The notes beneath the pieces are model-generated. The model worked only from the letters and a program-made list of their open reading frames with translations, was not told where the DNA came from and ran no database searches. DNA of 64,000 bases from positions 248,001-312,000 of the forward strand of contig JAUIGU010000001.1 of the NCBI GenBank assembly GCA_030432595.1. Reading direction: 5' to 3'. The stretch is from Phycisphaerae bacterium. Lineage in GTDB: Bacteria > Planctomycetota > Phycisphaerae > Phycisphaerales > Phycisphaeraceae. Within the stretch, counting starts at the first letter, position 1; every line of letters starts with the position of its first letter. Below, one piece after another: positions 42,725 to 50,593 of the stretch. The position numbers and the translations under genes were made by a program.

Positions 42725-43600
42725 TCACGCCGCGCGGCGGGCCTGGTTGGGTTGGGTCTGCAGGCTGCGCGTCCACAGCGGGGATGCCTGCAGGGCGCAC
42801 AACCCCGCACGGCCGCGGCGGATGCGGTGGAAGCTCAGTGTGGTGCCTCGGATCAGTACGGCCCGCGGTCGGGTCGGGAACACGAAGCTGCCGGTGTTGA
42901 TGACGAAACGCCCGGCGCGTTGCCAGACCCCGGGGTGGTGGGAGTGGCCGAAGATGATTGCCTCGGCGTGCGGGCAGTAGGACTCGGCGAAGGCGGAGGC
43001 GAGGTCGGCCTGGTTCCGCCAGAACCACGCCATGACGGCGAGGCGGTCGGGCCGACGGAGCACGCGCGTCCAGCCGTGCGCTTTAGCGCCGTGCCCGCCC
43101 TGGAGGAACTGCTGGTGCGCGACGTGCTGGACGACCTGGAGCCGGCGGCGCAGGTCGGTGGGCGTGCCGGCGTTCTGTTCCCGGTCGCGCCGCAGGGCTT
43201 CTTCGGTCGCGCGTTCCATCTCGCCGGCGCGGGCGGACCAGGGCGCGACGGCGGGGTGCAGCGCATCGCCGTGCATGACCAGCACCCGGCCGTCGAGCAG
43301 TTCGGCGTGGCGGCGGTCGGTGAGGTACGCGTCGTGGTTGCCCGAGAGCAGGTCCAGCTCGACGCCGTCGCGCTCACACAGCTCGGCCAGGCGCGCAACC
43401 TGCCGGGACGCCTCGGCGCGGGCCGAGACCAGTTGCAGTTCTGCAAGATCGCCGGCGACGACGAGCTTGTCCACGCCCTGCCACAACGGGCGCAGGTGTT
43501 CGGCGGCGAGCCGGCGACCCGGGCGCACCGACGGGTGGGCCAGGTGCGTGTCCGAGATCACGAGCGTGGCGGGCGGTGTTGGGCGGGCGGGATCGGGCAT
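42725..43600 (-). CDS. Calcineurin-like metallophosphoesterase (LpxH-like)
   Basis: 291 residues. Metal motifs are TLVISDTHLAH, VVAGDLAEL, LLSGNHDAYL, VLVMHGDALH and AIIFGHSHHPG. The arrangement resembles UDP-2,3-diacylglucosamine hydrolases and related phosphoesterases, but LpxH-specific residues cannot be confirmed. The C-terminal 45 residues are basic and poorly conserved. It is convergent with the PP2C gene, 18 bases apart. Confidence 0.85.
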   Translation of the reverse strand: MPDPARPTPPATLVISDTHLAHPSVRPGRRLAAEHLRPLWQGVDKLVVAGDLAELQLVSARAEASRQVARLAELCERDGVELDLLSGNHDAYLTDRRHAELLDGRVLVMHGDALHPAVAPWSARAGEMERATEEALRRDREQNAGTPTDLRRRLQVVQHVAHQQFLQGGHGAKAHGWTRVLRRPDRLAVMAWFWRNQADLASAFAESYCPHAEAIIFGHSHHPGVWQRAGRFVINTGSFVFPTRPRAVLIRGTTLSFHRIRRGRAGLCALQASPLWTRSLQTQPNQARRAA

Positions 43601-43824
43601 GCGGCAGTCCGGGGCACGTCGGCGGACAATCTAACGCCCGCCCCGCCGGTTGAGTTCGCTCAACGACGACATCGGCCCGGGTCTGAACCGTCTTCAAGAA
43701 TCCCGGGAACACTCGCCGCCGCGCCGCGGTTATGCGACCCTCGGCCGTTGCCCCACCGGAACCGCCCGCACAACCGTTACACTCCGCTCTCCTCGCCCTC
43801 CGCTCCGCCCGCCGGGATCGATCC

Positions 43825-44379
43825 ATGCCCCATACGGCCACGCACGCCGCCAAGAACGCGCTGTCGCCCCCGCACGAACCCGCCCTGACCGCCCCGTTAC
43901 GCGGCTTGCTCGAACAGATCGACGCGTTTGTCGCCGCGCTGCCCGACGGGCTCTACGACGCGGCCCCGCCGGCACACCTGGCCGGCTCGATCGGCGGGCA
44001 CGTCCGCCATTGCCTCGACCACGTCGCCGCGCTGACCGCTTGCCCCGACCAACCGACGCTCGACTACGACCACCGGGAGCGCGGCACGGCCATCGAACGC
44101 GACCCCGCCGCCGCACGCGACGCCGTCCGCCGGCTTTCCCAACAGCTCGAACCGCTCGACGCGATGGACGCCGAAACCCCTCTGCACGCCACGCTCGCGC
44201 TCACGCCCCAGCACCCGACGCGGGACTACGCCACCACCCTCGGCCGGGAGGTCGCCTTCGTGCTCAGCCACACCGTCCACCACCAGGCCTTGCTCGCCGC
44301 CGCCGCCAAAGCCGCCGGCCTGACGGTGCCCGACGGCTTCGGCGTCGCGCCCGCCACCCTCGCGCACCGCGCGTCCTGA
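43825..44379 (+). CDS. DinB-like protein
   Basis: 184 residues forming a four-helix metal-binding bundle by pattern: IGGHVRHCLDHVAAL supplies the first His ligand(s) and VLSHTVHHQALLAAA the pair of His near the C-terminus. DinB-family proteins are thiol-dependent transferases or unknowns. ATG 43825 is preferred; a further start at 43732 adds unlike sequence. The NRDE gene follows 27 bases later on the same strand. Confidence 0.78.
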   Translation: MPHTATHAAKNALSPPHEPALTAPLRGLLEQIDAFVAALPDGLYDAAPPAHLAGSIGGHVRHCLDHVAALTACPDQPTLDYDHRERGTAIERDPAAARDAVRRLSQQLEPLDAMDAETPLHATLALTPQHPTRDYATTLGREVAFVLSHTVHHQALLAAAAKAAGLTVPDGFGVAPATLAHRAS

Positions 44380-44406: not shown

Positions 44407-45183
44407 ATGTGCACCGTCACCCTGATCCCCCGGCCCGACGGCTACCGGCTCGCGGTCAACCGCGACGAGCTGCGCACCCGTCCGACCGCCGAGCCGCCGC
44501 ACACATTTGCCCACGACGGCCGCCGAGTCCTCTACCCGCGCGACCCGCAGGGCGGCGGGACCTGGATCGCTGTCAACGACGCCGGCCTGACGCTCACGCT
44601 GCTCAACCTCAACGAGACGAACACCACGGAGCGTGTCGCGGGTAATCACGACACCACGACTAACAAGCTCTCGCGTGGTTTGGTCGTCCCACAACTCGCC
44701 GAGGCCGCGAGCGTGGACGAAGCCTTGCAGATGGCGGACCGTCTGGACCCGACGCGTTACGCGCCGTTCCGCGTGTTGGCCATCGACGACGACCACACCG
44801 GCACGGTCCGAAGCGACGGGCGGACGCTCGAAACCCGACGCCGGGCCCGCCCCGAGCAACCCATGATGCTCACGAGCTCCGGCCTGGGCGACGCCGTCGT
44901 CGAAGGGCCGCGCCGCGCCGAGTTTGACGGCTGGTTCGGCGGGGATCCCGCCCAGTGGCCGCGCGAGCAGGACCGGTTTCACCGCCAACGCTTCGACGAC
45001 CGGCCAGAAGTCTCCGTCCTCATGTCGCGCGGCGACGCTCGCACCGTGTGCTGGTCGGCAATCACGGTCAACGCCGGCCGCGTCGAACTTGCCCACCGCG
45101 ACCTTGATGAACACGGCGCGGCGAGCGAACCACGGCACCGACTCTGTCTGGCCCGCGCCGCCGCGGTGCCCACGTCCGCATGA
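44407..45183 (+). CDS. NRDE/TANGO2-family protein
   Basis: 258 residues starting MCTVTLIPRPDGYRLAVNRDE. The N-terminal Cys after Met and the NRDE motif define the family, related in fold to N-terminal nucleophile hydrolases; TANGO2 in eukaryotes is linked to haem and lipid handling. GGGTWIAVNDAGLTLTLLN is the other conserved piece. The stop overlaps the start of the next gene (ATGA), so it is probably translated together with the large fusion protein. Confidence 0.88.
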   Translation: MCTVTLIPRPDGYRLAVNRDELRTRPTAEPPHTFAHDGRRVLYPRDPQGGGTWIAVNDAGLTLTLLNLNETNTTERVAGNHDTTTNKLSRGLVVPQLAEAASVDEALQMADRLDPTRYAPFRVLAIDDDHTGTVRSDGRTLETRRRARPEQPMMLTSSGLGDAVVEGPRRAEFDGWFGGDPAQWPREQDRFHRQRFDDRPEVSVLMSRGDARTVCWSAITVNAGRVELAHRDLDEHGAASEPRHRLCLARAAAVPTSA

Positions 45184-47822
45184 GCGACGCGAAAAACACG
45201 CCAAACCACCGCGGACGGGTCGGCTCGCGCCGCCGGCGCTGGCTGCTCATCGCGTACGCGGTGCTGTTGGCGGCCTCCACCCTCTACCGGGTGCTCGACC
45301 AACCCGAAGTACCGGAGAGCATCAGCGCTTACGACACGGTCACACCAACGTTCAATCGTCAAGGCCCGCTCGCCGACGAAGGCGTCAACCTTGCCTACCT
45401 CGATCTGGGCCCGCGCGACGCGCCCGTTGTCCTGCTGCTCCACGGCAGCCCCGGCGACAAAGAAAACTTCACGCACCTGCTCCCCCACCTCACCGACCGA
45501 TACCGCGTGATCGCGCCCGACCTGCCCGGCTTCGGACGCTCCGACCGATGGATTCCGTCTTACAGCACCACCGTGCACGCCCGTTACGTCCTGGCGCTCA
45601 TAGACGAGCTGGACATCGAGAACGCCCACGTCTTCGGCTTCTCCATGGGCAGCGGCGTCGCGCTGGACATGGTCGACCTCGCGCCGCAGCGCATCCGATC
45701 CCTGACCTTTTACGGCGGCGTCGGCATCCAGGAAGGCGAAGGCACAGGCGATTACGGCTTCGAACACTTCAAATACACTGTCGGCTACGGACTGCTCGTC
45801 TGGCCGCCGGAATTGCTCCCCCACTTCGGGAAACTCGGCAGCCCCGGTGCCCGCCACGCCTTCTTCCGCAACTTCAACGACACCGATCAGCGGCCTTTCC
45901 GCGGCATCCTCGAATCGCTCAACGACACCGGCACACCGCTGCTGGTCCTGCACGGCCGTGACGACTTCCTCGTCCCCGCGTGGACCGCCGAGCAGCACCA
46001 CGCAATTGTCGAGCACTCCGAATTGGTGATGTTCGACGGCGGCCACCTCATGCTGTTCGAACCGAACACGGCCCAGCCGCTCGCCGACGCGTTCGGCTCG
46101 TTCGTGGAGAGATACGAAGACCCGGACGCCGCAGCAATACGGCGCACGGTCTACATGCCCGGGGCCGAGGTGCCCAAGCCGACCGTGCTGCCGTTGAAGC
46201 TGAACCTCGGCCGCGAAGTCAACCCGTGGCTGCAATGCGCGACGATCATCGGTGCCACCTACATCCTCGAAGACCCGACAACGATCACGGTCGGGCTGAT
46301 GGTGCGTGACGGTCAGCTCGACTTGGTGTTGGCCGTCATGGCGCTGTTCGTCGGGCTTTTTACCGGTGATCTGGGCCTTTACCTGCTCGGCTGGTTCGGC
46401 GGGCGTCGCGCGTTGCGCTGGGGGCCGATCGCGAAGCGCGTGCCCAGCACGAAGCTCGACGCGATGGGCCGGTGGTTCGACTCACATGGGTGGACGGCGG
46501 TGCTGGCGTCGCGGTTCATCCCCGGCACACGGCTGCCGCTGTACGTCGCGGCCGGCGCGACGGGGCGCAAGCCCGGGCGCTTCGCGCTGTGGACCGCCGG
46601 CGCGGTGGCCATCTGGACCGTGGTGATGGTCGCGCTGGTGGTGCTGCTGGGCGAGGCGGCGGCCGGGCCGTTCAAGCTGCTGTTCGGCGAGTCGTGGTGG
46701 GCGGTGGTCGCGGCGGTGCTCGTGCTGCTGCTGCTCGCGCGGCTGGCGATGTACGGGATGACGTGGACCGGCCGGCGGAAGCTGTGGGTCAAGGTCAGCC
46801 GACTGTGGCGGCGCGAGTTCTGGCCGGCGTGGGTGTTCTACCTGCCGCTCGTGCCGTACCTCGCGTGGTTGTCTTTGAAGCACCGCTCATTGACGGTGTG
46901 GACCCTGGCCAACCCCGGGCTTCCGCACGGCGGCGTGGTCGGCGAGTCGAAGCACGCGATCCTCGAAGCGCTTGGGCAACACAAACACGCCGACGTGCTG
47001 ATCGGCGGGCTTGTGCACAGCGCCGACGAAACGCTTTGCTGGATGGACGAGAACAGCGAAACCTTCCCCGTCATCCTCAAGCCCGACGCGGCGCAGCGCG
47101 GGGCCGGCGTCCGCGTGGCCCGCGGACCCGACGATGTCGCAAGGTATTTCGAGCGCACCGCCGGCCCGGTGCTGGTGCAGTGTTTTCACCCCGGGCCGTT
47201 CGAGGCGGGTGTGTTCTACCTGCGGTATCCGCATGAAGACGCTGGCCGCATCTTCGCCGTGACCGACAAACACTTCCCGGTGATCACGGGAAACGGGCGC
47301 GACACGCTGGAGCGGCTGGTCTGGTCGCACCCGCGGTTCCGGATGCAGGCCGACGTGTTCCTGCGCCGGCTGGGCGAGAGCGCCGACCGCGTGCCCGCCG
47401 ACGGTGAAGCGGTGCCGCTGGGCATGGCTGGCAACCACTGCCAAGGCACGAAGTTCACGGACGGCGCTCACCTGATTACGCCCGAGCTCACCGCCGCGGT
47501 CGATGCCGTTGCGAAGCGGTTTGACGGGTTTTTCTTTGGCCGTTTCGATCTGCGTTACGCGGACGTCGCAAGCTTCACGGCCGGTCGTGACCTGCACGTC
47601 GTCGAGCTCAACGGCGTCACGAGCGAGGCGACGAACATCTACGACCCGCACCGTTCGGCGCGGTGGGCGTACGGGGTGCTCTTCGCGCAGTGGCGGCACG
47701 CGTTCGCGATCGGCGCGGCCAACCGGGGCCGCCTGCAGCAGGAGCCGCCATCGTTGTTCACGCTGCTCCGTGAAGTACGGCGGTACTACCGAAGCATCCG
47801 CATCGACCCGCGATCAGACTGA
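45180..47822 (+). CDS. Three-part fusion: alpha/beta-hydrolase, DedA/VTT membrane domain, ATP-grasp domain
   Basis: 880 residues. One membrane helix at 21-35 is followed by an alpha/beta-hydrolase (about 55-310): oxyanion HGSPG, nucleophile GFSMGSG (Ser155), acid in HGRDDFLV, His in GGHLMLF. Residues about 350-530 carry four to five membrane helices with the VTT/DedA motif SRFIPGTRLPLYVAAG. Residues about 580-880 read as an ATP-grasp ligase (FPVILKPDAAQRGAGVRV, then FGRFDLRY and VVELNGVTSEATNIYDP). All three active sites look intact. The reaction is unknown; a membrane-lipid-linked ligation or hydrolysis is an inference. Starts ATG 45180, overlapping the NRDE stop. Confidence 0.85.
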   Translation: MSDAKNTPNHRGRVGSRRRRWLLIAYAVLLAASTLYRVLDQPEVPESISAYDTVTPTFNRQGPLADEGVNLAYLDLGPRDAPVVLLLHGSPGDKENFTHLLPHLTDRYRVIAPDLPGFGRSDRWIPSYSTTVHARYVLALIDELDIENAHVFGFSMGSGVALDMVDLAPQRIRSLTFYGGVGIQEGEGTGDYGFEHFKYTVGYGLLVWPPELLPHFGKLGSPGARHAFFRNFNDTDQRPFRGILESLNDTGTPLLVLHGRDDFLVPAWTAEQHHAIVEHSELVMFDGGHLMLFEPNTAQPLADAFGSFVERYEDPDAAAIRRTVYMPGAEVPKPTVLPLKLNLGREVNPWLQCATIIGATYILEDPTTITVGLMVRDGQLDLVLAVMALFVGLFTGDLGLYLLGWFGGRRALRWGPIAKRVPSTKLDAMGRWFDSHGWTAVLASRFIPGTRLPLYVAAGATGRKPGRFALWTAGAVAIWTVVMVALVVLLGEAAAGPFKLLFGESWWAVVAAVLVLLLLARLAMYGMTWTGRRKLWVKVSRLWRREFWPAWVFYLPLVPYLAWLSLKHRSLTVWTLANPGLPHGGVVGESKHAILEALGQHKHADVLIGGLVHSADETLCWMDENSETFPVILKPDAAQRGAGVRVARGPDDVARYFERTAGPVLVQCFHPGPFEAGVFYLRYPHEDAGRIFAVTDKHFPVITGNGRDTLERLVWSHPRFRMQADVFLRRLGESADRVPADGEAVPLGMAGNHCQGTKFTDGAHLITPELTAAVDAVAKRFDGFFFGRFDLRYADVASFTAGRDLHVVELNGVTSEATNIYDPHRSARWAYGVLFAQWRHAFAIGAANRGRLQQEPPSLFTLLREVRRYYRSIRIDPRSD

Positions 47823-47835
47823 ATCACACCCAACG

Positions 47836-47891
47836 CGTTTAGCGGGAGACGCGCAGCGTCCCGCGGGCGGCTGCGCCGCACCCGCTAAACG
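47836..47891. repeat. Cruciform-type inverted repeat between convergent genes
   Basis: Outer arms CGTTTAGCGGG and CCCGCTAAACG enclose two smaller hairpins (GACGC...GCGTC and GCGGCTGCGCCGC). It spans the end of the acyltransferase gene and may act as a two-way terminator. Confidence 0.65.
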
Positions 47892-49702
47892 GACGCCTCG
47901 GACTTGCCGTGCAACCGCATGAATCCTGCCCGACCGTCTCGGGTCATGTACCGCGTCAACACCGGGGCCGGGACGTCGGTGAGGTCGATGAGCACCAGCG
48001 CATCCAGCACGTCGCCGAAATCCGGGTCGAGGTTGAATCCCAGCAGCTTGGCGTTGAGCTTGAGGTACTGCCGCAGCAGCACGGGCATCGCCTTCCCGTC
48101 ACTCTCGAACTCGCTGACGAGCTGGTTGACCTCGCTCAGGTCGGCAACGACGGTGGACAACGCGCGGTGGTTCACGTCGCGCGGCAGGGAGCGCTTGTTG
48201 GGGTTCTTGGGCCTGGGCAGGTCGTTGCGGCGCAGGCGGTGGTGCAGTTCGAGGAAGCGAGTGAGCAGGACCTTGGTCATCGAGCCGTACCGTGCGCTGA
48301 TAGACACGGGCCCAAGCAGGTAGCGGTACCGCGGGTGGGCGACGACGTAGTGACCGATGCCTTTCCAGAGGAGTTGCAGTGGCTGGAACGAGCGTTGCTC
48401 TTCGGGATGGACGAAAGAGCGCCCGAGCTCAAGCGTCGGGCCGAGGCGCTCGAAGAGCTTGCGTTTGTATCTGAACAGCGTCCCTGTGTAGAGCCCGTCG
48501 ATGCCGAAGCGCGGGATCAGTTCATCGGTTGCGCCGACGCGATAAGCCCCGGCGATGCGCGCCTTCTCCCGGTTCCACAGGATCAGGTGCAGGTATTGGT
48601 CGTCGAAACGGTCGAGGTCGAGCGCCTTGCCCGAGCCCTCGCCGACGGCGCGGAAGCACTGCTCGCGCAGCCGTCCGAGCTCGTGCAGGGTCGCGTCGAG
48701 CTGGTTGCGGCGAGCGATCACCACGTCGTACTCGCCGCTGGACAGCAGCCGCTGCGACGCGGGCAACGCAAGCAATTCGGCGGCGACGTCGCCGGGGTCG
48801 GCGGGCGCGGCGATCGGCGCGGCGCTATCCAGGTCGAGCCCGGCGGGTCTGCCGTCGTGTTTCGTGGTCTCGGGGCGCAGCAGGTAGGTTCGCACGCGCA
48901 GGTAGTCGTTGAGCCGGCGCGGGTCGTGGAACCGGGCGATGCGCCGCGGGGTGATCGGCCCGCCGACGTACGCCGTGATCGCCCCGCCGCGCTGCCTCAG
49001 CATCTCGGTGGGCAGCATGACGGTTCGAAGCCGCGGATGCACCAAGCCGGCGAGTTGGAACAGCGCCGAGTTGCGGCCGTCGAAGAACACACACATCGCC
49101 GTGGCCCCGGTGCGCTGCAGCACCCGCGCCGCGAACGGCTGCCACGCCGGGTCGGTCACGCAGCGCTTCCGCAGCGCGAGGTGCGACACCTCACCGGCGG
49201 GGAACACGCCCAGGCACCCGCCGTCGGACACGAAGCGCATCGCATCGCGGATCGACCGCGCGTTCATCTTCTGCGCCTTGGGCCCGCCGAACACGTCCAC
49301 GGGGAAGATGGCCTCGGCGAGTTCGGGGATGATCGCGAGCATCTCGTTGGCCAGCAGTTTCACATCCGGCCGGACGCGGCGCAGCATCGACAGCAGCGCC
49401 AGGCCCTCGACCCCACCGAACGGGTGGTTGGCGACCACGACCACGGGGCCGGTTCGAGGCACGCGCGCCAAATGATCGGCGGGCACGGACACGGAGACGT
49501 TGAGTGCCTCGAGCGCGTGGTCGGCAAAACCTCGCGATTCAACATCACGCTCTATGCGTCGGTGGACCTGGCGGTAGATGCGGTTGAGCGTCCCGAAGCG
49601 CAGCAGCCGCGCGACGGCAGGCTGGGCGGCGCGCCGGACCGGCCGGCGCGTCGGGGTCAATTGAAACGGGCCGGGCGAGCCGCCGGGGGGCGGGACGGAC
49701 AT
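47885..49702 (-). CDS. OlsF-like two-domain acyltransferase (PlsC-like plus OlsB-like GNAT)
   Basis: 605 residues. The N-terminal half (about 60-260) is PlsC-like: VVVVANHPFGGVEGLALL has the H-x5-acid motif with Glu where Asp is usual, and GCLGVFPAGEVS the second block. The C-terminal half (about 310-560) resembles OlsB/hemolysin-type acyltransferases: DQYLHLILWNREKARIAGAY, LGRSFVHPEEQR and LWKGIGHYV. OlsF proteins are known to make ornithine lipids with both activities in one chain, and this has the same order. ATG 49702 is preferred over TTG 49753. Confidence 0.82.
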   Translation of the reverse strand: MSVPPPGGSPGPFQLTPTRRPVRRAAQPAVARLLRFGTLNRIYRQVHRRIERDVESRGFADHALEALNVSVSVPADHLARVPRTGPVVVVANHPFGGVEGLALLSMLRRVRPDVKLLANEMLAIIPELAEAIFPVDVFGGPKAQKMNARSIRDAMRFVSDGGCLGVFPAGEVSHLALRKRCVTDPAWQPFAARVLQRTGATAMCVFFDGRNSALFQLAGLVHPRLRTVMLPTEMLRQRGGAITAYVGGPITPRRIARFHDPRRLNDYLRVRTYLLRPETTKHDGRPAGLDLDSAAPIAAPADPGDVAAELLALPASQRLLSSGEYDVVIARRNQLDATLHELGRLREQCFRAVGEGSGKALDLDRFDDQYLHLILWNREKARIAGAYRVGATDELIPRFGIDGLYTGTLFRYKRKLFERLGPTLELGRSFVHPEEQRSFQPLQLLWKGIGHYVVAHPRYRYLLGPVSISARYGSMTKVLLTRFLELHHRLRRNDLPRPKNPNKRSLPRDVNHRALSTVVADLSEVNQLVSEFESDGKAMPVLLRQYLKLNAKLLGFNLDPDFGDVLDALVLIDLTDVPAPVLTRYMTRDGRAGFMRLHGKSEASV

Positions 49703-49831
49703 GCGTGCGGGTCCCAGGGTGTGATCGTGAGGCGGAGGGAGGGGCGATGACAACGCGGTTGGACGCCCACGCCGCCGGGAGCGGTATCTTGCTTCCCCGA
49801 CTGACTATACGTTCGCCGCCGATGCCCGTTC

Positions 49832-50593
49832 ATGCAAACGCCCGCCATGATGCTTGCACAAAACTCACCGAATGTGGGCCCAGCCTTCGTCGTCGGTGGT
49901 CCGATGCACCTCGGCGTGGTGGTCGGGTTCGTGGCGCTATGCATCGCGGTGTGCGCGATCGGGCGGCACGAACACAGCCGCGAACACGGGGAAAGACGGT
50001 TCGGCCGTGCCCTCGCCTGGGTCTGCCTGGCCGGGTGGGTCGTGCAGCAGGGGTATTTCATCACGGTCGTGCATAACCCGCAGGACTCGCTGCCGCTGCA
50101 TGTCTGCGACCTCGCGGCGCTGATCGGGCCGTTGGCGCTGCTGATCGAACGCCCGGCGTGGTCGTGGTGGCTGCGGGCGCTGCTGTTTTTCTGGGGCGTG
50201 GGCCTGACCACGCAGGGGCTCGTCACCCCCACGCTCGAACACGGACCGAACCACCCGCGGTTCTACCTGTTCTGGCTCAACCACGGCTCGGTGGTGCTGC
50301 TGGCGGTGTACGACTTCGTGGTGCGCGGATACCGGCCGCGCTACGCCGAGGTGTGGTTCGCCATCGGCGTGACGTACGCGCTGGCGGCGCTGATGATCCC
50401 GGTGAACCTCGCGCTGAACGCGAACTACGTCTTCAGCGGGCCGAGCACGCCCGAGGCGCCCACGGTGCTGGATGCGCTGGGGGCGTGGCCGGTGCGCCTG
50501 GTGTGGATGGCGTTGATCGTGGCGGCGGTTTACCACGCGCTGTGGGCAGCGATGAGAATACTGCCGAAAGCATCGGTCAATCCTGAAGAATAA
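49832..50593 (+). CDS. YwaF/TIGR02206-family integral membrane protein
   Basis: 253 residues with about seven hydrophobic helices. The sequence DSLPLHVCDLAALIGPLALL and the repeated short loops with His (NHPRFYLFWLNHGSV) are typical of TIGR02206 proteins. Function unknown. Several Met codons near the start (49832, 49847, 49850) are possible. The last 17 bases overlap the 3' end of the opposite ABC gene. Confidence 0.82.
   Translation: MQTPAMMLAQNSPNVGPAFVVGGPMHLGVVVGFVALCIAVCAIGRHEHSREHGERRFGRALAWVCLAGWVVQQGYFITVVHNPQDSLPLHVCDLAALIGPLALLIERPAWSWWLRALLFFWGVGLTTQGLVTPTLEHGPNHPRFYLFWLNHGSVVLLAVYDFVVRGYRPRYAEVWFAIGVTYALAALMIPVNLALNANYVFSGPSTPEAPTVLDALGAWPVRLVWMALIVAAVYHALWAAMRILPKASVNPEE

What the first reader, a model, noticed from the sequence alone, without database searches (positions are those of the whole stretch)
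45180..47822. Hydrolase-DedA/VTT-ATP-grasp fusion protein
Three domains from unrelated families sit in one 880-residue chain with their active-site motifs intact. DedA/VTT proteins include lipid scramblases and flippases; joining one to a hydrolase and an ATP-grasp ligase suggests a complete route that handles a membrane-bound compound. The ATGA overlap with an NRDE/TANGO2 gene, a family linked to lipid or haem handling, supports this idea.
Basis: partly seen in the sequence, partly recalled or inferred. Interest (0 to 1): 0.7.

Follow-up and report, generated by a model that had tools for sequence, protein, structure and literature searches.

The report
Aminolipid-linked hydrolase–flippase–ligase fusion protein
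A single bacterial protein joins a hydrolase predicted to face outward, a membrane domain of the lipid-flippase kind and an ATP-driven amide-ligase-like domain predicted to face inward; it is real and conserved in many phyla, often beside genes that make amino-acid lipids, and its product is unknown.

Summary
ORF 45180-47822 (+, 880 aa) carries an alpha/beta-hydrolase, a VTT/DedA domain and an ATP-grasp domain in one frame, with an ATGA overlap to a TANGO2/NRDE gene. It is not an artefact: of 79 classifiable named loci, 45 have the complete three-domain frame, across at least nine phyla by record title, with conserved catalytic residues. Pfam barely sees the ATP-grasp domain, but profile, AlphaFold model and fold comparison place it nearest cyanophycin synthetase (Z 17.9).

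The locus is a recurring cluster: OlsB-type N-acyltransferase, OlsA/PlsC acyltransferase, DinB-fold protein, TANGO2, fusion. The window has all of these, OlsB and OlsA being fused as an OlsF-like gene. Charge distribution suggests hydrolase outside, ligase inside.

Best reading: aminolipid tailoring and export, in which the ligase forms an amide, VTT flips the lipid and the hydrolase trims it outside. No product is known. Against this, some relatives lack the acyltransferases or VTT, and Bacteroidota short forms sit with DinB/TANGO2 instead. Genomes with true GlsB lack the ligase, so it is not the missing Bacteroides serine ligase. Parts are known; the combination was not found in the literature searched.

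The parts
45180..47822 (+). 880-aa three-domain fusion: membrane-anchored alpha/beta-hydrolase, VTT/DedA domain, ATP-grasp ligase
45219..45296 (+). N-terminal membrane helix (residues 14-39) with RRRR at its start: predicted signal anchor, N-inside
   Evidence: AlphaFold helix 14-39; hydropathy peak 21-39; 27 of 29 relatives with a clear helix are more positive before than after it, 1 the reverse
45330..46115 (+). alpha/beta-hydrolase domain (residues 51-312), Ser155/Asp262/His289, predicted periplasmic
46224..46760 (+). VTT/DedA domain (residues 349-527) with E364-D365 and R445-F-x-P-G-x-R451
   Evidence: Pfam VTT_dom 1.6e-13, NCBIfam UptA 1.5e-13 but below cut-off, conservation
46815..47807 (+). 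ATP-grasp ligase domain (residues 546-876), invariant K634, E675, K697, R788, D790, E809, N811; predicted cytoplasmic
44407..45183 (+). TANGO2/NRDE protein, starts Met-Cys (Cys2 Ntn-nucleophile type); ATGA overlap with the fusion
   Evidence: Pfam TANGO2 8.3e-13; Cys2 in 50 of 55 cluster TANGO2 rows, other 5 gaps
43732..44379 (+). DinB-fold protein (true start probably inside this frame, e.g. ATG at 43825), H93/H180/H184 in frame numbering
   Evidence: Pfam DinB_2 1.6e-4, just below cut-off; the three His in 57-58 of 59 rows, rest gaps
47885..49753 (-). OlsF-like aminolipid synthase: PlsC-type O-acyltransferase fused to OlsB/GlsB-type GNAT N-acyltransferase, tail-to-tail with the fusion
   Evidence: NCBIfam OlsF 7.5e-120 (401 bits, cut-off 620), GlsB 2.1e-35, GlsA 1.5e-23, all below cut-off; Pfam Acetyltransf_5 and Acyltransf_2 over cut-off

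Best explanation
The fusion is a membrane machine that tailors and exports an amino-acid-containing lipid. Step 1 (separate genes): an OlsB-type GNAT N-acylates an amino acid with a 3-hydroxy fatty acid and an OlsA/PlsC-type enzyme O-acylates it. Step 2 (inside the cell): the ATP-grasp domain activates a carboxylate as acyl-phosphate and joins it to an amine, either the aminolipid's free carboxylate with a second amino compound or the reverse, giving an amide-extended aminolipid (lipodipeptide-like). Step 3: the VTT/DedA domain, which keeps both arginines of the anionic-lipid flippase type, moves the lipid to the outer leaflet. Step 4: the membrane-tethered serine hydrolase, outside, removes an acyl or other ester group. 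TANGO2 (Cys Ntn-hydrolase type) and the DinB-fold protein act as amidase and tailoring enzyme, or in turnover, on the same compound. Shown: domains, conserved catalytic residues, gene association. Inferred: topology (positive-inside rule and model), substrate class, order of steps, every reaction.
For: Acyltransferase link: of 53 named loci with at least 3.5 kb upstream, 39 have an OlsB-type GNAT, 36 a PlsC, 38 DinB, 30 TANGO2 within 6 kb; 17 have all four and 4 have none. In 294 Planctomycetota the ligase is in 31 and PF13444 GNAT in 43, both in 23 (odds ratio 34.9, p 4e-16); 18 of those 23 lie within 10 kb. NCBIfam's best matches for the GNAT and PlsC of L102 are OlsB (3.7e-40) and OlsA (2.2e-45), below the equivalog cut-offs. 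Ligase type: nearest by profile and fold are CphA, GshAB, LysX/ArgX and RimK. VTT: R445 91, R451 92, G449 92 of 92 rows; two arginines six apart match the spacing of YghB Arg130/Arg136, thought to bind the phosphate in UndP flippases (PMC10127716, passages). Topology. The top Foldseek hit of the whole model by E-value is a membrane phospholipase A, 6i8w (1.2e-12), though others are nearly tied. Human TANGO2 is reported to bind acyl-CoA (PMC11867700, abstract only). Natural splits: L096 (DinB, VTT 206 aa, TANGO2, ligase 382 aa) and L124 show the fused parts as neighbours.
Against: All 6 family-f2 Planctomycetota genomes with the ligase lack a PF13444 GNAT at E 1e-8; in 4 of them (one clade, 100% support) no VTT is found between hydrolase and ligase. 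In Bacteroidota, 21 of 39 hits are short stand-alone ligases; of 8 read, 7 sit with DinB and TANGO2 and none with an adjacent GNAT (one, L154, has a PF01553 acyltransferase about 2.3 kb away), and 5 have a small membrane protein next door, which Pfam calls LysE over cut-off in 1 of 5, below cut-off in 2 and not in 2. LysE proteins export soluble amino acids (recalled), which favours a water-soluble product. The second acid of the YghB pattern is missing (0 of 92 rows at that spacing). Carbamoyl-phosphate synthetase (Z 14.3), synapsin (13.1) and biotin carboxylase (12.3) are also in the ligase fold list. Other esterases have better TM-scores than 6i8w, and by sequence the hydrolase is closest to ring-cleavage hydrolases and dehalogenases. 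No substrate pocket was analysed.
Confidence: 0.45

Rival explanations
1. Soluble product: the ligase, DinB-fold protein and TANGO2 make or recycle a small peptide- or thiol-like metabolite by a 'ligate, modify, release' logic, as in ergothioneine synthesis (EgtA ligase, EgtB with a DinB domain, EgtC Ntn amidohydrolase; recalled), and the VTT domain or another small membrane protein exports it.
For: DinB-TANGO2-ligase trio in 7 of 8 short-ligase Bacteroidota loci read, none with an adjacent GNAT; YHS proteins recognised in six of these loci and DoxX-like in the two tested, a peroxiredoxin-like gene in L149, and a partly LysE-like neighbour in 5 of 8; ligase closest to cyanophycin synthetase and GshAB; ligase without GNAT in family f2.
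Against: Strong association with OlsB/OlsA-type genes elsewhere, including loci with acyltransferases and the fusion but no DinB or TANGO2 found nearby (L043, L049, L158, L161).
Confidence: 0.25
2. Undecaprenyl-phosphate machine: the VTT domain is a UndP flippase, the ligase modifies a UndP-linked or cell-wall peptide precursor, the hydrolase acts on it outside.
For: VTT keeps both arginines of the UndP-flippase subfamily by spacing and matches UptA at 1.5e-13; the ligase resembles D-Ala-D-Ala ligases at Z about 13.
Against: Acyltransferases are the frequent neighbours; cell-wall genes were not systematically searched. UptA match is far below the curated cut-off (51 of 250 bits); the second acid is missing. 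One clade keeps the enzyme domains without VTT.
Confidence: 0.12
3. Turnover rather than synthesis: hydrolase and TANGO2 degrade aminolipids or phospholipids, and the ligase re-uses the released amino compound.
For: Two hydrolase-type proteins in one operon; a membrane phospholipase A is the top Foldseek hit of the whole model by E-value; human TANGO2 resembles acid ceramidase and NAAA (PMC13044924, passages).
Against: Synthetic-type acyltransferases are frequent neighbours; other hydrolases are nearly tied.
Confidence: 0.12
4. The frame is an assembly or sequencing artefact joining separate genes.
For: GC skew changes sign inside the frame near 46000.
Confidence: 0.01

Closest known systems
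Cyanophycin synthetase ATP-grasp domain (CphA1), with GshAB, LysX/ArgX and RimK
   Same: ATP-grasp fold, ExN pair and lysine, amide-bond-forming type; Z 17.9 over 269 residues, rmsd 4.0
   Different: 14-19% identity to the cyanophycin synthetase rows; fused to VTT and hydrolase instead of a Mur-ligase-like domain; own N-terminal motif (NPxxxxGGxxGESK in the window)
OlsB/OlsA, OlsF and GlsB/GlsA aminolipid synthases
   Same: The recurrent neighbours are of this kind
   Different: In the passages read, known pathways end with the diacylated amino acid or an unassigned ligation; none describes a ligase-flippase-hydrolase partner. Scores are below the equivalog cut-offs, so the amino acid is undetermined
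DedA/VTT COG0586 (UndP flippases such as UptA)
   Same: VTT domain, two arginines six apart, acids E364-D365 at the first re-entrant region
   Different: Fusions named in the passages of PMC10127716 that I read are rhodanese, PAP2 and pyridine-nucleotide oxidoreductase, not ATP-grasp or alpha/beta-hydrolase; second acid of the YghB pattern absent
Membrane phospholipase A 6i8w (PlaF, name recalled)
   Same: Alpha/beta-hydrolase described as membrane phospholipase; top Foldseek hit by E-value, 24% identity
   Different: Free-standing protein; many other esterases score nearly as well or have higher TM-scores
Serine-glycine lipodipeptides (lipid 654, doreamides) of Bacteroides
   Same: Amide-extended aminolipid of the sort proposed here; the Ser-ligating gene is reported unidentified (PMC12746155, passages)
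   Different: None of the 6 genomes with GlsB over cut-off has this ligase

Membership tests
ATP-grasp superfamily (carboxylate-amine ligases) | Fold and ATP/metal residues (lysine, ExN pair) | tested here: met
ATP-grasp superfamily (carboxylate-amine ligases) | Amide-bond-forming activity | not testable with these tools
   needs enzyme assay
Alpha/beta-hydrolase (serine hydrolase) | Fold and Ser-Asp-His triad | tested here: met
   nucleophile is Ser, so not a haloalkane dehalogenase (Asp nucleophile, recalled)
DedA/VTT family | VTT domain | tested here: met
   Pfam VTT_dom over cut-off
DedA COG0586 flippase subfamily | Two basic residues at second re-entrant tip (YghB Arg130, Arg136 spacing) | tested here: met
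   R445 91 of 92, R451 92 of 92, matched by spacing to the text of PMC10127716
DedA COG0586 flippase subfamily | Two acids at first re-entrant tip (YghB Glu39 and Asp51 spacing) | tested here: not met
   E364 and adjacent D365 in 87 of 92 rows each, but no acid twelve residues after E364 in any of 92 rows; judged by spacing, no alignment to YghB was run. So I do not file it in this subfamily
UptA undecaprenyl-phosphate transporter | NCBIfam NF052604 curated cut-off | tested here: not met
   51.3 bits against 250
Aminolipid (OlsBA/OlsF/GlsAB) biosynthetic cluster | N-acyltransferase and O-acyltransferase in the locus | tested here: met
   window 47885-49753; GNAT 39 and PlsC 36 of 53 loci
Aminolipid (OlsBA/OlsF/GlsAB) biosynthetic cluster | Equivalog-level identity as OlsF, OlsB or GlsB | tested here: not met
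   all proteins scanned are below the curated cut-offs
Serine ligase of Bacteroides glycine lipids | Present in genomes with true GlsB | tested here: not met
   0 of 6
TANGO2/NRDE, cysteine Ntn type | Met-Cys start and NRDE motif | tested here: met
   window MCTVT...NRDE; Cys2 50 of 55, Asn 47, Arg-Asp-Glu 50 of 55 with 5 gaps

The most novel reading that the evidence does not exclude
A widespread, undescribed bacterial pathway makes and exports amide-extended aminolipids (lipodipeptides or similar). Its central enzyme carries ligase inside, flippase across and hydrolase outside the membrane in one chain. TANGO2, whose human form causes disease and whose reaction is unsettled, is a cysteine amidase or acyltransferase of this pathway.
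Probability: 0.3. Interest if true: 0.82.

Novelty: new variant of a known kind. Interest (0 to 1): 0.63.

Why it matters
If right, it names candidate genes for aminolipid tailoring and export in Planctomycetota, Acidobacteriota and other little-studied phyla. It gives TANGO2 a recurrent bacterial context with amide chemistry around it, so its unsettled reaction becomes testable. It also shows a DedA-type domain fused to enzymes predicted to lie on both faces of the membrane, which would make finding the substrate of such a domain unusually direct.

Tried and rejected
A single-protein scan of genome contigs with the window's ligase found no relatives; alignment A1 could not be turned into patterns; the seven-row alignment A3 worked. 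Of 332 relatives reported there only the best 80 were returned, so counts lean to close relatives of the query set. L135 was dropped from the architecture count because its ligase frame is broken. From the 32 Planctomycetota genomes I dropped G132 (partial match, E 6e-14) before the co-occurrence test. Neighbour profiles (GNAT, PlsC, DinB, TANGO2) were built in rounds from these same loci, so they are not independent of them; the PF13444 and PF05742 tests are.

The first count of hydrolase residues, on an alignment made by adding sequences, left 72-73 of 108 rows as gaps there; I replaced it with a domain-only alignment. The quick tree was used; the careful search did not finish.

Tested and rejected: that this is the missing serine ligase of Bacteroides lipids. 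Considered and rejected: haloalkane dehalogenase for the hydrolase (Ser, not Asp, nucleophile); haem handling by TANGO2. TANGO2 co-occurrence in Planctomycetota is weaker than that of the GNAT (17 of 31 ligase genomes against 58 of 263 others, p 2.7e-4).

Fold tables: absence of other families is not evidence. PDB sequence searches with the window's TANGO2 and VTT parts found nothing at the thresholds used. Literature: ten searches of the held library; the ones aimed at the fusion or cluster are 8, 20, 48, 63, 64 and 77. The papers listed in 8 and 20 were checked by passages and name DedA and ATP-grasp apart; the ATP-grasp mention in PMC11631085 is a reference. Papers listed and most were seen as listings only. 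Subscription papers and preprints are not held, and one paper on amidoligases was not available, so 'undescribed' is only as good as that.
Full report
WHAT IS THERE. The frame 45180-47822 (+) encodes 880 residues. Its ATG lies in an ATGA overlap with the stop of a TANGO2/NRDE gene, 44407-45183. A DinB-fold gene, 43732-44379, precedes TANGO2 by 27 bases. On the other strand, tail-to-tail, lies 47885-49753, a protein with a PlsC-type acyltransferase half and an OlsB/GlsB-type GNAT half; its best NCBIfam match is the ornithine lipid synthase OlsF at 7.5e-120, yet 401 bits against a cut-off of 620. So the locus holds DinB, TANGO2 and the fusion in a row, with an aminolipid-synthase-like gene next door.

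THE THREE DOMAINS. Pfam recognises the hydrolase and the VTT domain over their cut-offs; the ATP-grasp domain is missed in the single sequence. I gathered relatives from 294 Planctomycetota genomes, aligned 28 sequences, the window included, and searched with the profile: cyanophycin synthetase 3.3e-10, then CphA2-like proteins and GshAB. AlphaFold2 gives the domain pLDDT 92. Fold comparison puts it nearest CphA1 (Z 17.9, rmsd 4.0, 269 aligned), then bifunctional GshAB (15.2), LysX/ArgX (about 15) and RimK (13.9); carbamoyl-phosphate synthetase (14.3), D-Ala-D-Ala ligase (13.2), synapsin (13.1) and biotin carboxylase (12.3) are also listed. The closest group forms amide or peptide bonds (family knowledge). 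The full-length model (pLDDT 88.6, pTM 0.71) shows a helix at 14-39, the hydrolase, a helical VTT block at 349-527 and the ligase from about 546. The pTM is moderate, so the relative placement of domains is not established.

CATALYTIC RESIDUES. In the ligase, among 101 distinct rows, K634, E675 and K697 are in all 101, and R788, D790, E809 and N811 in 100 with one gap. Hydrolase: Ser155 61, Asp262 64, His289 63 of 65 rows. VTT: R451 and G449 92, R445 91, E364 and D365 87 of 92 rows; these rows were chosen by matching the VTT profile, so the four proteins without it are not among them. TANGO2: Cys2 50 of 55, the rest gaps. DinB: H93 58, H180 57, H184 57 of 59, the rest gaps.

TOPOLOGY. Of 47 named fusions with a hydrolase, 29 have a clear hydrophobic stretch before it by a simple hydropathy scan; in 27 of these the segment before is more positive than the one after, and in 1 the reverse holds. 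By the positive-inside rule the hydrolase is outside. The ligase needs ATP, and the segment before it (526-546) carries seven lysines or arginines and one acid, so it should be inside. The DedA core has three membrane-spanning and two re-entrant helices (PMC10127716, passages), an odd number of crossings, which fits. This is inference, not measurement.

CONSERVATION AND SPREAD. A degenerate scan of one genome per species found 332 relatives among 403 candidate stretches; the best 80 were returned. Record titles and the tree labels name Planctomycetota, Acidobacteriota, KSB1, Calditrichota, Verrucomicrobiota, Gemmatimonadota, Krumholzibacteriota, Thermodesulfobacteriota, Spirochaetota and the Bacteroidota/Rhodothermota/Balneolota group. 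Of 79 classifiable loci, 45 are complete hydrolase-VTT-ligase frames, 19 VTT-ligase, 8 ligase alone, and 7 are cut by contig ends. On a quick tree of 100 ligase domains the three-domain form is spread over the whole tree and needs at least 22 changes, of which well-supported branches force 8; hydrolase-ligase without VTT is one clade. In some Acidobacteriota VTT and ligase are separate neighbouring genes (L096, L124).

THE CLUSTER. The common order is OlsB-type GNAT, PlsC/OlsA, DinB, TANGO2, fusion. Among the 53 named loci with at least 3.5 kb before the ligase gene, GNAT is within 6 kb in 39, DinB in 38, PlsC in 36, TANGO2 in 30; 17 have all four and 4 none. Besides the window's own, four-base overlaps couple the ligase gene to an upstream DinB (4 loci), TANGO2 (4) or PlsC (2) and to downstream genes in 3; start codons were not curated. 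In 294 Planctomycetota the ligase occurs in 31 (32 at the threshold, one partial hit dropped) and the GNAT family in 43, together in 23 (odds ratio 34.9, p 4.4e-16), 18 of them within 10 kb. The p value treats genomes as independent, which they are not. TANGO2 co-occurs in 17 of 31 against 58 of 263 (p 2.7e-4), 11 of 17 within 10 kb.

WHAT SPEAKS AGAINST A LIPID. The 8 ligase genomes without GNAT are all 6 of family f2 plus 2 with completeness of 84-86%. Four f2 genomes have no detectable VTT. In 198 Bacteroidota genomes the ligase occurs in 39: 18 in frames of 812-917 residues and 21 in frames of 342-397. I read 14 of these 39 neighbourhoods. Of 6 long ones, 5 show GNAT and all 6 PlsC. Of 8 short ones, 7 have DinB and TANGO2 and none an adjacent GNAT; L154 has a PF01553 acyltransferase about 2.3 kb from DinB. 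YHS proteins were recognised in six of them and DoxX-like proteins in the two tested. In 5 of 8 a small membrane protein adjoins the ligase; Pfam calls it LysE over cut-off in L150, below cut-off in L149 and L151, and not in L148 or L153. So a water-soluble product is a serious rival. Of the 21 short-ligase genomes, 12 hold a gene matching the GlsB profile at 1e-20, against 40 of the other 177.

MECHANISM. I favour an aminolipid route: acyltransferases make the N,O-diacyl amino acid; the ligase extends it by an amide inside; VTT flips the anionic lipid, its two conserved arginines having the spacing of those thought to bind the phosphate in UndP flippases (PMC10127716), though the second acid of that pattern is missing; the outside hydrolase trims it. 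Human TANGO2 resembles cysteine Ntn hydrolases such as acid ceramidase and NAAA (PMC13044924, passages) and is reported to bind acyl-CoA (PMC11867700, abstract), fitting cleavage or exchange of an acyl amide. What DinB does is open. The attractive idea that this is the unknown serine ligase of Bacteroides lipids ('remains to be identified', PMC12746155) fails: none of 6 genomes with GlsB over cut-off has it.

NOVELTY. Every part belongs to a known superfamily. The fusion and the cluster were not found in the searches aimed at them (hits of 8 and 20 checked). DedA fusions named in the passages read are with rhodanese, PAP2 and pyridine-nucleotide oxidoreductases. I rate it a new variant of a known kind.

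Noticed in passing
window 44500-47500: GC skew changes sign inside the fusion frame: -0.12 to -0.17 in windows over TANGO2 and the hydrolase part (44500-45999), +0.07 to +0.09 over VTT and ligase (46000-47499). Cause unknown, perhaps different history or codon choice of the two halves.
   Followed up: no
window 49832-50593 (+): TMEM164-related integral membrane acyltransferase (TIGR02206, 100.5 bits over cut-off 75; Pfam TMEM164 2.5e-36), head-to-head with the OlsF-like gene; a further lipid-type gene in the neighbourhood.
   Followed up: no
L148-L154 (Bacteroidota): Another cluster type: DinB, TANGO2 and short ATP-grasp in all seven, with YHS (seleno)protein genes in six, DoxX-like genes in several and a small, partly LysE-like membrane protein in five. 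It may define the core function better than the fusion does.
   Followed up: partly
L052-L055: One clade keeps hydrolase and ligase in one frame but has a shorter hydrophobic stretch without the R-PG-R motif in place of VTT.
   Followed up: partly
L086 12564-15365 (-); similar frames at L039 14197 (same genome) and L038 13594: A true cyanophycin synthetase (TIGR02068, 1150 bits over cut-off 850, scanned in L086) lies about 3.5 kb beyond the fusion in Pla86; the L038 frame matches the ligase profile too but was not scanned.
   Followed up: partly
window 42725-43600 (-): Calcineurin-like phosphoesterase beside the cluster; recurrence was not tested.
   Followed up: no
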